DNA from: an uncultured Bacteroidales bacterium
GTDB taxonomy: Bacteria > Bacteroidota > Bacteroidia > Bacteroidales > WCHB1-69
Assembly: GCA_905235135.1 (NCBI GenBank)
Contig: CAJOKR010000027.1
Coordinates: 1-38,966 of the forward strand
Length of the DNA stretch: 38,966 nucleotides
Direction of reading: 5' to 3'
Shown here: piece after piece, positions 15,629 to 19,340 of the stretch
How the letters are laid out: each line of letters starts with the position of its first letter
Numbering within the stretch: the first letter of the stretch is position 1
Program-made: the position numbers and the translations under genes
Notes under the pieces: model-generated
The model's input: only the letters and a program-made list of their open reading frames with translations
Database searches by the model: none
What the model was told of the DNA's origin: nothing

Positions 15629-15745
15629 GTCTTTAAGTTTTAATCGGCTGCAAAGAAACGGCTATTTCAGAAAGTGGGAAATCACCTTTGATGGGTATTT
15701 TGCTTTCGGTGGAATTACCAGTTTTGGCGATTTGAGAAAAACAAA

Positions 15746-15782
15746 AACCACCGCAAAGGTCACGAAAACTCTTGCGGCGGTT
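15746..15782 (-). terminator. Hairpin terminator after the MBL-rubredoxin operon
   Basis: AACCACCGCAAAG pairs with CTTGCGGCGGTT with one mismatch. It lies 27 bp past the stop of the MBL-rubredoxin gene and is followed on the minus strand by a T-rich run. Member of the local hairpin family. Confidence 0.72.
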
Positions 15783-15808: not shown

Positions 15809-16750
15809 TTACGCCTTGTTGAACTTCTCCTTCGGCTGCTTGCAACGGGGGCAACGCCAGTCGTCAGGCAGGTCTTCGAAGGCAACGCCGTCGTGCTCTG
15901 CGGGATCATAGACGTAGCCGCAGATGGAGCAGACGTACTTGCCGGAAGCTTGCTGCTTGGAGAAATCCACCTCGGCCAGAACGGTCGGCACAGGATTATC
16001 CAGATCCATCACGCGCTTGGCCTCCAGGTTCTCATAACCTTGCGGTGTGTGGGTGCCGCAATAGACGGTGGGGTGGTTGCGGACGAACTCGCGCACTCGG
16101 TTCAGCGTCTCGCGGGCGGCTGGAAGGTCGTCAAAGACCACCGAAAGTTTGTCCTCGTGAAGAGCCTCATCCATGTAAGTGATATCGCCGTGAAGCATGT
16201 AGAACAGTCCGTCCATCTCTACCACAATGATGCTGTTGCCCTTGGTGTGGCCCTTGGCCTTGATGAAGTAGACGCCGTCGGCTATCTTTTGGCTTTCAGG
16301 GAAGTTGTAGTAGGCTCCGTCGGTGAAGCTGACGGGCACGAGGTTCGTCAGACCCTGCAACTCGGCGGCGGCCATCTCTTCCTGGTTCACATAGACCTTC
16401 GCGTTAGGGAAACTTTTCAGTTCGCCACTATGGTCGGCATGACGGTGGGTGAGCAAAATCTTGGTCACCTGCTCCGGCTTGTAGCCAAGGGCATTGAAAG
16501 CATCCATATAGCTGCAGATGTCCTTGCCAGTGAAGATGGGAGAGTTCTCGTCAGGCACCTCCTCAGGAGTCCCGGCAGGGATACCAGTATCCACCAGAAT
16601 CACCTCGCTGCCTGTGTCAATCAGATAGTTCTGCAGACTGCCACGATAGCGGATGTTCTTGTCGAACTTGTCCATCCCTTCTTCGCCTCCGAACACAAAG
16701 GGCTGGGTATAGAATCCGTCTTTACGGAATTTTACGGCTTTGATTTCCAT
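15809..16750 (-). CDS. Metallo-beta-lactamase-fold protein fused to C-terminal rubredoxin
   Basis: A 313-residue two-domain protein. Residues 1-250 are an MBL-fold hydrolase with metal ligands His102, His104, Asp106, His107 (THRHADHSG), His168 (KGHTKGN), Asp189 (LHGDITY) and His234 (GTHTPQG). Residues 270-313 are a complete rubredoxin with the Fe(Cys)4 site at Cys274, Cys277 ([10 protein letters not shown]) and Cys300, Cys303 (CPRC). The HxHxDH set is of the hydrolase/lactonase type, not the HxExDH of flavodiiron proteins, and no flavodoxin domain is present, so it is probably not an NO or O2 reductase of that class. It is the last gene of an operon with an OhrR-type regulator, a bacterioferritin-like protein and a small winged-helix protein, and starts 6 bp after the latter. 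A redox-linked metallohydrolase in oxidative stress is the inference. Confidence 0.93.
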
Positions 16751-16756
16751 ACGCCC

Positions 16757-16930
16757 TTATTTTGCCGGTTCCCACTTGCAGCGGACGGGCGATACAATCG
16801 CGCCTTCCTTTTTCAGTTCTGCAAAGGCTTTATCGACTTCCTTGCGGTCGATGCCGGTGATTTCAGCGATTTTGCCTGCGTTCACGGGCTGTCCGAACTC
16901 ACGCATGGCTTGTAAAACTTTTTCTTTCAT
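16757..16930 (-). CDS. 57-residue winged-helix-like small protein
   Basis: This short gene runs from the ATG at 16930 to a TAA at 16757-16759. The sequence (MKEKVLQAMREFGQPVNAGK, then IAEITGIDRKEVDKAFAELK and KEGAIVSPVRCKWEPAK) is the pattern of a minimal winged helix: helix 1, a helix-turn-helix around residues 16-42 (AGKIAEITGIDRKEVDKAF), then a short wing (GAIVSPVRCKWEP). It could bind DNA or RNA, or be a protein-interaction module. It lies between the bacterioferritin-like gene (36 bp upstream) and the MBL-rubredoxin gene (6 bp downstream) on the same strand, so it is co-transcribed and perhaps translationally linked to the latter. One cysteine (Cys51) in the wing could be redox-active; this is speculation. 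Confidence 0.8.
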   Translation of the reverse strand: MKEKVLQAMREFGQPVNAGKIAEITGIDRKEVDKAFAELKKEGAIVSPVRCKWEPAK

Positions 16931-16966
16931 AATTTTCGATATTTAATGGATTAGAATTTTGGTTGA

Positions 16967-17428
16967 TTACATCATTGCCATGAGGAAATTATCATAGCCG
17001 AGTTTCTCGATGAGATAGAGGTACTGAGCCTCCCAGGCCATGTGGTCCTTCTCACCGTCGATCCATTTCTGGATGAGCTTCTGGGTGGGATAGTCATCGG
17101 CGAAAGCTTGTGCCATCTCGCTCATGATCTTCACCGCGTCAGGATTGAAGTCGCTCTCAATCTGTTGTTTCGGGTCGTCATAGAACGGGAACTCCACGGT
17201 CTTCATCAGCTTCTGCAACTCAGCAGGCTTGTAGCCAAGTTCCACCAGACGGTTCAGCACTTCCTCAGCTTCCTCCCATTCTTCTTCGGCTTCCTCTTTC
17301 CACTTGTCAGCCAGTTTGTTCCAGCCTTGCAGACGGTCGTATGCCGAGAATGCGAAATGTTGTTTACTGTTTCCAAACCAAACAGCTCCAGCCATGGCGA
17401 ACTGTTTCAAAGCTTCTTTTTTTGTCAT
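16967..17428 (-). CDS. Bacterioferritin-like (ferritin fold) protein
   Basis: A 153-residue helical protein close to bacterioferritin length (about 158). The C-terminal helix (DGEKDHMAWEAQYLYLIEKL then GYDNFLMAMM) matches the bacterioferritin end closely, including the ExxH metal ligands Glu126 and His129. The other half-site, normally ExxH in helix B, reads Glu50-W-E-Glu53, so the histidine ligand is replaced by glutamate, and the usual heme-ligand methionine cannot be placed with confidence. The protein probably has a ferritin-like four-helix fold with an altered di-iron site. Function could be iron storage, peroxide consumption or a DPS-like role. It is the second gene of the OhrR operon, 38 bp after the regulator. 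Confidence 0.78.
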   Translation of the reverse strand: MTKKEALKQFAMAGAVWFGNSKQHFAFSAYDRLQGWNKLADKWKEEAEEEWEEAEEVLNRLVELGYKPAELQKLMKTVEFPFYDDPKQQIESDFNPDAVKIMSEMAQAFADDYPTQKLIQKWIDGEKDHMAWEAQYLYLIEKLGYDNFLMAMM

Positions 17429-17466
17429 AATTGCAATAATTTTAAGGTGAATAAATTTGTTAAGTT

Positions 17467-17916
17467 TTATTTTTTTGTTCGTTTTAATCCTTCAATAAGT
17501 TTGTCAAGCGTGGGAATCATTTTCAACATCTCTTCTTCTTCTCCCGTTTTCAATGCGACGTCGTTGAGGAGACAATCAGGAATTGGTTTTGCCTTCTCTT
17601 GCAAGGCCTTGCCTTTTTTGGTCAACGAGACGATGCGCTGGCGGGTGTCCTCTTTGCCTTTTGCGCGACTGACGAATCCCGCCTTCTCCATCCGTTGCAG
17701 CAGCGGGGTCACGGTGTTGGTGTCCAGCAGCAGCTTCTTGGCGATGTCGCAGACCGGCTGTTTGTCCTGTTCCCAAAGCACGAGCATCACGAGATATTGC
17801 GGGTAGGTGATGCCTAACGGATCCAGGTATGGGTGGTATGCGCCCATCGTGAGCCGCGCCGCCGTGTAGAGTCGGAAGCAGAGTTGGTTTTCCAGTTTCA
17901 GCTGATTATCAGTCAT
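17467..17916 (-). CDS. MarR-family regulator, OhrR-like peroxide sensor
   Basis: A 149-residue MarR protein. The N-terminus (LENQLCFRLYTAARLTMGAY, then PYLDPLGITYPQYLVMLVLW) is the OhrR signature, with the peroxide-reactive cysteine equivalent at Cys13. The winged helix-turn-helix spans about residues 55-98 (PVCDIAKKLLLDTNTVTPLL, then RMEKAGFV) with the wing KEDTRQRIVSLT. OhrR represses until the cysteine is oxidised by organic hydroperoxides. It heads a four-gene operon rather than pairing with ohr, and two short dyads flank its -7 promoter element, consistent with autoregulation. The absence of ohr in the window means the target response here is iron, rubredoxin and MBL functions. That interpretation is inference; the regulator call is firm. 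Confidence 0.92.
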   Translation of the reverse strand: MTDNQLKLENQLCFRLYTAARLTMGAYHPYLDPLGITYPQYLVMLVLWEQDKQPVCDIAKKLLLDTNTVTPLLQRMEKAGFVSRAKGKEDTRQRIVSLTKKGKALQEKAKPIPDCLLNDVALKTGEEEEMLKMIPTLDKLIEGLKRTKK

Positions 17917-17948
17917 TTCCTTGTTCTTTGATGAAGTATTTTATTTAT

Positions 17949-17995
17949 ATCGTTCACGATGCAAAAATACAAAAATTTTTATATCGTATGCGATA
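17949..17995. promoter_or_regulatory. Paired operators around the OhrR-operon promoter
   Basis: Two related dyads, ATCGTTCACGAT at 17949-17960 and TATCGTATGCGATA at 17982-17995, lie 34 bp centre to centre. The minus-strand -7 element TATTTTTG (17962-17969) is between them. Occupation of either would block transcription of the ohrR-like operon. Binding by the OhrR-like protein is inferred from position and MarR-type symmetry. Confidence 0.65.
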
Positions 17996-18020
17996 CAAAA
18001 ATTTTTTTTTGAAAAAAAAT

Positions 18021-18048
18021 GCCGCAAAGGTAGCGGGAACCTTGCGGC
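18021..18048 (-). terminator. Hairpin terminator after the NimA-like gene
   Basis: GCCGCAAAGG pairs with CCTTGCGGC around a 9-bp loop and is followed on the minus strand by eight T residues. It sits 5 bp past the stop that the NimA-like gene would use without its frameshift (18054-18056), supporting that stop as the original end. Confidence 0.78.
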
Positions 18049-18081
18049 GGTGTTCATTCCTTCCGTCCCCACTTCATCTCC

Positions 18082-18564
18082 TCACCCTGTTTGTCGTACT
18101 GCTTGCGCTTGCCAACAGGAGGCTCGGCCAGAGTGATGCGCACCAGTCCGTTCAAGGCTGCGGGCAATGGCATCGTCGAAAGCATCCATGTGCTTGGGGA
18201 GGAACCGCTGGCAGATGACCCGCAAACCCTCGATCTTTTCTTCGCGGTTGGTCACCAACTCTGCCTTTCCAACGGCAGTGGCTGATTTGTACTGCAGCGT
18301 GAAGTTGCCGTCTTTCGGCCCGACAGTAGGCGCACATTTGGTAACGGCCGACAGGAAAACCGTTGGACAATGTGCTATGCAGTCGAGCTTTTCTCCCTCC
18401 AAAGCACAATGGAAATAGAACGTCCTTTCGTCGATGCGCGCTAACGACAGGGGCAATCCGTAGGGTGTCCCATCGGGTCGCGTGAAACTGACTGTAACGT
18501 AAGGTGCCTTGTCCAGCACCTCCAACGCGAAGGCGGCATCCATTTGGCGGCTTGCTTTTCTCAT
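18082..18564 (-). CDS. NimA-like pyridoxamine 5'-phosphate oxidase-family protein, frameshifted near the 3' end
   Basis: The reading frame from the ATG at 18564 gives 160 residues. The split-barrel flavin-binding fold is recognisable: APYVTVSFTRPDGTPYGLPL, then FYFHCALEGEKLDCIAHCPT (the FHxAxxGxK motif of NimA-type proteins) and VGKAELVTNREEK. After SLERTG the residues become nonsensical (AHHSGRASCWQ). In another frame the following bases encode LVRITLAEPPVGKRKQYDKQ and GEEMKWGRKE, the normal family end, stopping at 18054-18056. One extra base within about 18141-18150 explains this. It may be a real mutation or a sequence error. The family includes nitroimidazole reductases and heme-binding proteins. 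It has its own promoter element and terminator. The longer start at 18705 is rejected because it precedes the promoter. Confidence 0.8.
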   Translation of the reverse strand: MRKASRQMDAAFALEVLDKAPYVTVSFTRPDGTPYGLPLSLARIDERTFYFHCALEGEKLDCIAHCPTVFLSAVTKCAPTVGPKDGNFTLQYKSATAVGKAELVTNREEKIEGLRVICQRFLPKHMDAFDDAIARSLERTGAHHSGRASCWQAQAVRQTG

Positions 18565-18588
18565 AATTTGATTATTGTTAATACGGTG

Positions 18589-18596
18589 CAAAGGTA
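18589..18596 (-). promoter_or_regulatory. -7 promoter element for the NimA-like gene
   Basis: TACCTTTG on the minus strand matches TAnnTTTG, 24 bp before the ATG at 18564. Confidence 0.6.
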
Positions 18597-18655
18597 CAAA
18601 TTTCCCGCATCCCCGCGTACAGTGCCTAAAAAAGATAAGTCCTTGAAAACAAACA

Positions 18656-18687
18656 CCGCCGCAAAGGCATCGAAACCCTTGCGGCGG
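18656..18687 (-). terminator. Hairpin terminator after the glutathione peroxidase gene
   Basis: CCGCCGCAAAGG pairs with CCTTGCGGCGG around a 9-bp loop, 29 bp past the stop of the peroxidase gene. Same family as the hairpins at 11648, 15746 and 18021. Confidence 0.72.
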
Positions 18688-18716
18688 TTGTCCTATCATC
18701 CTCAAAGGAGAAACGG

Positions 18717-19340
18717 TTATTTCAGCATTGCCTCAATTTCCGGTTCCAAATCTTCGGGGGTAGCCACCGGCGGGAAGCGCTTGATGACGGTGCCATCCTT
18801 GGAAATGAGGAACTTGGTGAAGTTCCAGCGGATGTCGCCCTCGCCGCGGCCTTCGGCCTTGCTCAGACTATCGACCAGCGCCATCGTGGCCTTGTTCTTC
18901 AGCCCTTTCACCTCTTCGGTGGGAACCTGCTGGGTGAGGTACGTGAAGAGAGGCTCTGCATTTTTTCCGAACACGTCGATTTTCTTCATCAGCGGGAAGG
19001 TGACGCCGTGGTTGAGGCGGCAGAACTCGGCGATTTCCTCATCGGTGCCGGGTTCCTGATGCTTGAACTGGTCGCATGGGAAACCGAGGATCACCAGACC
19101 CTGGTCTTTGTACTTTTTGTAGAGAGCTTCCAAGCCATCATATTGCGGGGTGAAACCGCACTTCGAGGCGGTGTTGACAATCATGAGGACGTTGCCGCGA
19201 TATTGCGCCAGATCCACCTCTTCGCCCTTGTTGTTCAGGACTTTGTAATCGTAAATTGTTGCCATTTTTTCTTGTTTTTGCGCACAGCCGGCCAGGAGCA
19301 CAAGCAGCCCGACGACCATGCAGGTGAGACATTTTTTCAT
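18717..19340 (-). CDS. Glutathione peroxidase-family lipoprotein
   Basis: A 207-residue peroxidase with an N-terminal lipoprotein signal (MKKCLTCMVVGLLVLLAGC, lipidated Cys19). The thioredoxin-fold domain has the peroxidatic cysteine in NTASKCGFTPQ (Cys61, not selenocysteine), a resolving-type cysteine in GFPCDQF (Cys89), and the conserved Trp-Asn of IRWNFTKFL. Bacterial members use thioredoxin-like reductants rather than glutathione to reduce peroxides. Most family members are cytoplasmic; the signal here places it on the periplasmic side. An internal Met at residue 26 (MATIYDYKVL) could produce a cytoplasmic form. It has its own promoter element 90 bp upstream and a family hairpin downstream, and fits the stress-gene neighbourhood. 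Confidence 0.93.
   Translation of the reverse strand: MKKCLTCMVVGLLVLLAGCAQKQEKMATIYDYKVLNNKGEEVDLAQYRGNVLMIVNTASKCGFTPQYDGLEALYKKYKDQGLVILGFPCDQFKHQEPGTDEEIAEFCRLNHGVTFPLMKKIDVFGKNAEPLFTYLTQQVPTEEVKGLKNKATMALVDSLSKAEGRGEGDIRWNFTKFLISKDGTVIKRFPPVATPEDLEPEIEAMLK

What the first reader, a model, noticed from the sequence alone, without database searches (positions are those of the whole stretch)
15809..17995. Operon of OhrR-like sensor, altered bacterioferritin, 57-residue winged-helix protein and MBL-rubredoxin fusion
Seen: four genes on one strand with gaps of 38, 36 and 6 bp, one promoter element flanked by two matching dyads, and one terminator. Known: OhrR usually controls the ohr peroxidase gene, rubredoxin feeds electrons to superoxide or peroxide reductases, and ferritins consume peroxide and iron. 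Inference: an organic-hydroperoxide-responsive iron/redox module without ohr. I know of no described system with this gene set.
Basis: partly seen in the sequence, partly recalled or inferred. Interest (0 to 1): 0.72.

Follow-up and report, generated by a model that had tools for sequence, protein, structure and literature searches.

The report
OhrR-controlled redox cassette with PscE-like protein
A gut-type, apparently anaerobic bacterium carries a probable peroxide-switch gene cluster whose smallest member belongs to the same small winged-helix family as PscE, a reported subunit of the green-sulfur-bacteria photosystem; the cluster is one arrangement of a stress cassette that is reshuffled among related bacteria.

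Summary
In detail: four minus-strand genes with gaps of 38, 36 and 6 bp, two dyads beside a Bacteroidales-type -7 box, and a closing hairpin. The four-gene order is not a fixed system. It recurs in two same-genus genomes (one with a shortened MBL) and is one of 45 arrangements in 55 related loci. OhrR control is well supported by sequence: sensing Cys and Tyr are kept, and a pair of ATCG-N4-CGAT operators lies upstream in 20 of 27 loci with OhrR and 0 of 53 without. Operator and recognition helix both differ from the AATT type in print. No OsmC/Ohr gene was found in 24 same-genus genomes, own included; the only other exact operator pair in the own genome precedes an ohrR paralogue and GPx. The ferritin has lost two ferroxidase ligands, a third varies among relatives, and the haem Met is Trp. 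The main new point is that the 57-residue protein is a PscE homologue (49-52% identity) with a Z-alpha-like fold and an invariant wing cysteine, also present in genomes without FMO. Its function is inferred. Peroxide response and DNA binding are untested.

The parts
17467..17916 (-). OhrR-like MarR-family repressor (149 aa)
   Evidence: phmmer to OhrR chains 2pfb E 1.2e-31 and 1z91 E 1e-30; C13/Y17/Y27/Y38 conserved; recognition helix TNTVTP instead of SATLTP/SGTLTP
16967..17428 (-). bacterioferritin-like protein with altered ferroxidase site (153 aa)
   Evidence: Pfam Ferritin 5.6e-9; AF2 pLDDT 94.6, Foldseek best hits BfrB/Bfr, TM mostly 0.82-0.86; W17, E50, W51, E53, E126, H129 invariant in 20 of 20 distinct close homologues
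16757..16930 (-). 57-aa winged-helix protein of the PscE family, Z-alpha-like fold, invariant wing Cys51
   Evidence: phmmer to PscE 7ueb_E E 2.4e-14; profile E 2.6e-30; AF2 pLDDT 87.6; Foldseek top hit ZBP1 Z-alpha TM 0.81, E 1.6e-3
15809..16750 (-). metallo-beta-lactamase-fold protein fused to a short rubredoxin (313 aa)
   Evidence: Pfam Lactamase_B 8.7e-14 and Rubredoxin 3.8e-12; H102, H104, D106, H107, H168 and D189 in 32 of 32 homologues, H234 in 31 of 31 that cover it
17983..17994 (.). predicted operator dyad 1 (ATCG-N4-CGAT), over the expected -33 region
17949..17960 (.). predicted operator dyad 2 (ATCG-N4-CGAT), over the expected transcription start
17962..17969 (-). -7 promoter box TATTTTTG (TAnnTTTG type, consensus recalled)
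   Evidence: such a box lies beside dyad 2 in 21 of 22 operator-bearing upstream regions
15743..15780 (-). terminator-like hairpin after the operon
   Evidence: regex; not listed
18012..18050 (-). terminator-like hairpin between the operon and the upstream genes
   Evidence: regex; not listed
18717..19340 (-). neighbour: glutathione peroxidase-family protein (context, separate unit)
   Evidence: Pfam GSHPx 9.3e-43
18082..18591 (-). neighbour: PNPOx/Nim-like protein (context, separate unit)
   Evidence: Pfam Pyridox_ox_2 2.9e-13; below the NimIJ cut-off

Best explanation
This is a probably peroxide-inducible operon of a ruminant-gut type Bacteroidales. Its OhrR-like repressor sits on two ATCG-N4-CGAT operators that cover the -33 region and the start site, so it blocks its own promoter (shown: site architecture, conservation and co-occurrence with ohrR; inferred: binding). 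Oxidation of Cys13 by an organic hydroperoxide or similar oxidant releases it (inferred from the OhrR family). The released operon makes a bacterioferritin-fold protein with a remodelled metal site, probably for metal sequestration or a non-classical diiron reaction (inferred). It also makes an MBL-fold metalloenzyme fused to its own rubredoxin, probably a reductive or hydrolytic detoxification enzyme (inferred). Third, it makes a 57-residue PscE-family protein. I think this is most likely a nucleic-acid-binding mini winged helix whose invariant wing cysteine makes it redox-sensitive (about 45%); the main alternative is a docking protein for redox complexes, as PscE is reported to be (about 30%). 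Ohr was not found in this lineage, and GPx (in the paralogous OhrR operon of the same genome, and next door in the window) is the likely peroxide-removing partner.
For: Operator pair in 22 of 31 distinct ohrR upstream regions, 21 of the 22 with a TAnnTTTG box; 2 of 6200 resampled regions. In the 80-locus set, a pair lies upstream of or near the winged-helix gene in 20 of 27 loci with an OhrR hit and 0 of 53 without; counted anywhere in the locus, 22 of 27 against 1 of 53 (L050). In GPx-first or ferritin-first operons the pair lies before the first gene (L053, L051, L016, L003, L031). The only other exact pair in the own genome precedes an ohrR paralogue followed by GPx. Sensing Cys/Tyr kept. 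Recognition helix [DE]TNT.TP in 32 of 33 distinct rows; the exception, L074, has no pair. No OsmC family in 24 of 24 same-genus genomes, own included, but in 12 of 16 others of the order. 48 of 55 loci with full flanks hold a redox gene on the same strand within 2.5 kb of the winged-helix gene. PscE relationship.
Against: No expression, binding or peroxide data. Nine of 31 ohrR upstream regions lack the pair; five have it before a gene further upstream, one (L015) has wider spacing, and L071, L074 and L122 show none in the sequence held. Ten of the 53 loci without OhrR have no more than 1.5 kb upstream of the winged-helix gene. The 80 loci were picked by similarity to the 57-aa protein, so the redox association is biased. 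Distant family members often stand alone or beside DUF1015 and housekeeping genes. Sixteen of the 24 same-genus genomes without OsmC also have no match to the 57-aa protein, so the lack of Ohr is not tied to this cassette. D33 and A37 stand where Z-alpha has Asn and Tyr, so binding in the Z-alpha manner is unlikely.
Confidence: 0.62

Rival explanations
1. The 57-residue protein is not a nucleic-acid binder but a docking or assembly factor that holds small redox proteins (rubredoxin domain, ferritin, flavoproteins) together or to the membrane, as PscE is reported to stabilise PscC and FMO2 in the photosystem.
For: PscE is reported in contact with PscC and the second FMO trimer (passages of PMC9529944). 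The canonical Z-alpha contact residues are replaced. The gene travels with many different redox enzymes. Compared with the window, it is more conserved than its partner in 31 of 31 (OhrR), 23 of 23 (ferritin), 31 of 31 (MBL, pieces included) and 25 of 25 (GPx) loci; these are only loci with at least 90% identity in the small protein and some loci are held under several ids, so the figure is biased.
Against: Winged-helix fold with conserved basic residues on helix 3 (R/K29, K30, K34) fits nucleic-acid binding; distant members often stand alone.
Confidence: 0.3
2. The four genes are an ordinary, loosely assembled oxidative-stress gene neighbourhood; shared regulation by OhrR is all that joins them, and there is no common mechanism.
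For: 45 distinct arrangements in 55 loci, some differing only by what falls inside the 2.5 kb limit; MBL pieces in L013, L014, L175 and L179 and a shortened MBL in L005/L171; MBL-rubredoxin without the small gene within 12 kb in L235.
Against: The small winged-helix gene sits beside a redox gene in 48 of 55 loci, although the loci were chosen by it.
Confidence: 0.4
3. The regulator answers to something other than organic hydroperoxide, such as hypochlorite, quinones, reactive sulfur or metal.
For: The NCBIfam OhrR model NF052638 scores below its cut-off (141 of 200 bits); operator and recognition helix differ from those described; no Ohr target found.
Against: The Cys/Tyr sensing set is intact, and an OhrR homologue that controls gpx and answers organic hydroperoxide is in print (PMC4999210, abstract and passages).
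Confidence: 0.25

Closest known systems
OspR-gpx and OhrR-ohr of Pseudomonas aeruginosa (PMC4999210)
   Same: OhrR-family thiol repressor; GPx as a target of OspR; sensing Cys
   Different: Predicted operator is ATCG-N4-CGAT, not AATT-N-AATT; recognition helix TNTVTP; the operon holds a bfr-like protein, a PscE-like protein and MBL-rubredoxin; no OsmC/Ohr match in the genome
PscE of the Chlorobaculum tepidum reaction centre (PDB 7ueb chain E, PMC9529944)
   Same: 49-52% identity, similar length (57 and 59 residues), same SPxRCxW wing motif
   Different: Found in a genome without FMO and in a stress-type operon
Z-alpha domain of ZBP1/DLM-1 (1j75, 9j8g) and bacterial Z-alpha-like domains (PMC11298590)
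   Same: Fold (TM about 0.8, Foldseek E 1.6e-3) and profile similarity E 4e-8; wing SP...W
   Different: Asn and Tyr of the Z contact are D33 and A37; an invariant Cys is added
Bacterioferritin
   Same: Fold and length including the short fifth helix
   Different: Against E18, H54, E94 and haem Met52 (numbering recalled): W17, E53, a variable position 97 (Asp in the window) and W51
Flavodiiron proteins with rubredoxin (PMC6033852, abstract start seen in the listing)
   Same: MBL fold plus rubredoxin in one chain
   Different: No flavodoxin domain found; HxHxDH metal motif rather than the flavodiiron HxExD (recalled)

Membership tests
OhrR | N-terminal peroxidatic Cys with partner Tyr residues | tested here: met
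   C13, Y17, Y27, Y38 in 32 of 32 covering homologues; C13 aligned with the Cys of NQLCF in 2pfb
OhrR | controls an ohr/OsmC gene | tested here: not met
   no PF02566 match in 24 of 24 same-genus genomes, own included (own is 88% complete)
OhrR | AATT-N-AATT type operator | tested here: not met
   paired ATCG-N4-CGAT found instead; AATT core as described in PMC4999210; binding itself not tested
OhrR | release from DNA by organic hydroperoxide | not testable with these tools
   needs gel shift or reporter
Bacterioferritin | four-helix bundle with short fifth helix | tested here: met
Bacterioferritin | six ferroxidase ligands and haem Met | tested here: not met
   E50, E126, H129 kept; W17 and E53 for E18 and H54; position 97 is D 8, T 8, E 3, K 1 of 20; W51 for the haem Met (numbering of the known protein recalled)
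PscE | sequence homology over full length | tested here: met
   E 2.4e-14 single, 2.6e-30 profile; PscE itself found as L101, 59 of 59 residues
PscE | part of a photosynthetic reaction centre | tested here: not met
   tested only through FMO (PF02327): in 8 of 8 f19 genomes, 0 of 14 others including own
Z-alpha | winged-helix fold with wing Trp | tested here: met
   W53
Z-alpha | Asn and Tyr on helix 3 that contact Z-DNA | tested here: not met
   D33 and A37 (alignments); bacterial Z-alpha-like domains lacking N173 and Y177 did not bind Z nucleic acid in PMC11298590 (abstract and passages)
Flavodiiron protein | flavodoxin domain and HxExD motif | tested here: not met
   no flavodoxin match; HRHADH; motif of the family recalled
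Rubredoxin | two CxxC knuckles | tested here: met
   C274, C277, C300, C303 in 23 of 23 covering homologues

The most novel reading that the evidence does not exclude
PscE, described as a photosystem subunit, is one branch of an undescribed family of roughly 57-60 residue Z-alpha-like winged-helix proteins with an invariant wing cysteine (SPxxCx[WY]). In anaerobic Bacteroidota these act as thiol-switched nucleic-acid-binding or adaptor proteins for redox-stress cassettes, and the green sulfur bacteria recruited one into their reaction centre (or its placement there needs another look).
Probability: 0.3. Interest if true: 0.8.

Novelty: new variant of a known kind. Interest (0 to 1): 0.6.

Why it matters
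It ties a reported photosystem subunit of unknown origin to a widespread small protein of Bacteroidota, which makes the question of what PscE does testable outside phototrophs. It also predicts an OhrR subgroup with its own operator and recognition helix, associated with GPx, ferritin and MBL-rubredoxin genes in a lineage where no Ohr was found, with a specific gel-shift target.

Tried and rejected
Z-DNA binding as the main function was set aside because the two contact residues are replaced. A flavodiiron protein was rejected (no flavodoxin domain, different metal motif). A classical bacterioferritin was rejected (ligands). A unique operon was rejected (order recurs), as was a fixed four-gene system (arrangements vary).

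A redox link for the whole winged-helix family is only weakly supported. Of 86 same-strand immediate neighbours (80 loci), 77 were scanned; nine were left out (short ORFs, one long ORF, and the L123 pair). Matches: DUF1015 7, PNPOx 6, GPx 4, cNMP-binding 4, ferritin 2, desulfoferrodoxin 2, SOD 1 (a desulfoferrodoxin, a SOD and a ferritin were located). Some, the GPx hits among them (L112 is one), come from loci close to the window. A control of 70 second or third neighbours (77 drawn at random from 170, seven short or end-cut ones left out) showed none of the PNPOx, GPx, ferritin, desulfoferrodoxin or SOD families among its 25 listed families of 76; singletons beyond that are not visible, and at least one ferritin (L113) and two MarR proteins are in it. 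L123 was misread by the scripts and is not counted as a family sequence.

Literature searches listed no paper on PscE relatives outside green sulfur bacteria or on this operon. This covers one open-access library only, and one search matched 1,767 papers of which 10 were listed, so it decides nothing.
Full report
Anatomy. The promoter region holds two dyads of the form ATCG-N4-CGAT around a TATTTTTG box. Hairpins lie before the promoter and after the last gene (neither is in the list). The unit is therefore likely one transcript, separate from the GPx and Nim/PNPOx-like genes just upstream. The nearest named relatives of the small gene come from ruminant-gut Bacteroidales MAGs (titles), from which I infer the setting.

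Regulator. The first gene product matches OhrR chains of the PDB and keeps C13, Y17, Y27 and Y38 in 32 of 32 covering homologues; a second Cys (C115) is kept in 16 of 32. The operator pair (at most 1 mismatch per dyad, starts 30-42 bp apart) is present in 22 of 31 distinct ohrR upstream regions, 21 of 22 with a TAnnTTTG box, against 2 of 6200 resampled regions; 107 of 20000 random 200-mers drawn from the loci, which themselves hold such sites, also have one. Where ohrR is not the first gene, the pair sits before the first gene: GPx in L053, L051 and L016 (44 bp spacing in L016; both 44 and 36 in L051), ferritin in L003 and L031. L015 has wider spacing; L071, L074 and L122 have no pair in the sequence held. 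In the 80 loci, 27 have an OhrR hit; a pair lies from 3.5 kb upstream of the winged-helix gene to just past it in 20 of these and in 0 of the other 53 (43 of which have more than 1.5 kb upstream). Counted anywhere in the locus it is 22 of 27 against 1 of 53, L050. The recognition helix reads [DE]TNT.TP in 32 of 33 distinct rows with that region, own included. The exception, L074, reads DNGTLTP, closer to the known OhrR chains (LDSATLTP, LDSGTLTP), and has no ATCG pair. The described OhrR core is AATT-N-AATT (PMC4999210, passages). I read this as a changed specificity, with helix and operator changed together; one exception is thin evidence for that.

Regulon. With the exact pattern, the own genome has one other pair, on contig C29. 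It precedes an ohrR paralogue (75% identity) followed by GPx (75%) and, by eye from the translations, flavodoxin/ferredoxin-like and nitroreductase-like ORFs. No OsmC/Ohr match was found in 24 of 24 same-genus genomes, own included, while 12 of 16 other genomes of the order have one (own genome is 88% complete). Sixteen of those 24 have no match to the 57-aa protein. GPx as partner of an OhrR-family protein has a precedent in OspR of P. aeruginosa (PMC4999210, abstract and passages).

Cassette. Of 80 loci brought in by the 57-aa protein (of 476 confirmed relatives, from a list that itself reached its limit), 55 have 2.5 kb on both sides. 48 of 55 hold a redox gene on the same strand: ferritin in 36, GPx 23, OhrR 21, MBL with or without rubredoxin 19, flavodoxin 11; a ZIP transporter (17), radical SAM (11) and a divergent AraC gene (19) also recur. 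There are 45 distinct strings of labels, one of them the winged-helix gene alone (6 loci). Labels are by tblastn similarity to my own clusters, most of which were named by eye. The exact four-gene order is seen in L172/L144 (G697, ohrR cut by the contig end) and L005/L143/L171 (G710, MBL match begins at residue 87); L008 has an MBL without rubredoxin. The 57-aa gene is patchy in the genus: 11 listed same-genus genomes besides own have it and at least 20 do not. The MBL-rubredoxin protein is rarer: 4 of 198 genomes of the order at E 1e-60, one of them own and one in two contig-end pieces; in G449 the small gene was not found within the 12 kb fetched.

Ferritin. The fold is bacterioferritin: AF2 pLDDT 94.6, Foldseek TM mostly 0.82-0.86 among the best Bfr chains. 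In 20 of 20 distinct close homologues W17, E49, E50, W51, E53, D93, E126 and H129 are invariant, and position 97 is D 8, T 8, E 3, K 1. Mapped by the phmmer alignments (with gaps before helix C, and helix A by extension), this keeps E51, E127 and H130 of E. coli Bfr, replaces E18 and H54, leaves E94 as Asp in the window but variable in relatives, and replaces the haem Met52 (numbering recalled). A second ferritin type, 21-28% identical, lies in other loci, many with the AraC gene.

MBL-rubredoxin. The seven metal ligands H102, H104, D106, H107, H168, D189 and H234 are kept (32 of 32; H234 31 of 31 covering), with HxHxDH. The nearest curated models are AiiA-type lactonases, all far below cut-off, and the nearest non-rubredoxin PDB chain is a methyl parathion hydrolase. 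The rubredoxin domain aligns best with short 45-46 residue rubredoxins. Substrate unknown.

Small protein. The best PDB match is PscE. A locus from a genome with FMO encodes PscE itself, 59 of 59 residues (L101). A profile of 42 relatives, L101 among them, matches PscE at 2.6e-30 and ZBP1 Z-alpha at 4e-8. The AF2 model (pLDDT 87.6) has ZBP1/DLM-1 Z-alpha as nearest folds, at Foldseek E 1.6e-3, followed closely by many other winged-helix proteins. D33, S47, P48 and C51 are invariant in the 42. 86 of 395 genomes of the phylum, 142 of 295 of the order and 42 of 118 relatives (overlapping sets) have a member. FMO is in 8 of 8 tested genomes of family f19 and 0 of 14 tested others, so members occur in genomes without this phototrophy marker. 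The passages of PMC9529944 that I saw describe PscE as a helix-turn-helix subunit that likely stabilises PscC and FMO2 and name no relatives. The bacterial Z-alpha-like domains tested in PMC11298590 lack Asn173 and Tyr177 and did not bind Z nucleic acid (abstract and passages); the window protein lacks both as well.

Judgement. Regulation by OhrR: likely. Joint redox-stress role: likely. The role of each enzyme and of the small protein: inferred. Interest rests on the PscE link and on the altered OhrR-operator pair rather than on the four-gene order. On checking the draft I corrected several counts (ferritin ligands, Ohr-less genomes, the OhrR/operator table); none of them called for a change of odds.

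Noticed in passing
L006, L016, L019, L034, L036, L041, L047 near the winged-helix gene: Separate rubredoxin-like stretches beside the winged-helix gene; in the cluster representative and in L006 the first metal knuckle reads CPC (CxC) instead of CxxC.
   Followed up: no
window 18082-19340: GPx and Nim/PNPOx-like genes directly upstream on the same strand, making a wider redox island.
   Followed up: partly
L013, L014, L175, L179; L005, L171: Pieces or a shortened copy of the MBL gene after the winged-helix gene.
   Followed up: partly
L194, L207, L208: Distant winged-helix relatives beside superoxide dismutase, a ferritin and desulfoferrodoxin.
   Followed up: no
L200, L209, L217, L226, L227: Distant relatives beside 414-416 residue ORFs; DUF1015 was the commonest neighbour family overall (7 of 77), but I did not check that these are the same proteins.
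   Followed up: no
L168 4112-6844 (own genome C29): Second OhrR-GPx operon, followed by flavodoxin/ferredoxin-like and nitroreductase-like ORFs.
   Followed up: partly
window 15017, 15751, 18022, 18659: Word CCTTTGCGG occurs 4 times against 0.5 expected, two of them in terminator-like hairpins.
   Followed up: no
L236 2432-6599 (G503): A long relative of the cassette in another family: divergent AraC, ferritin, winged helix, rubredoxin, PNPOx, MBL-rubredoxin, ZIP.
   Followed up: no
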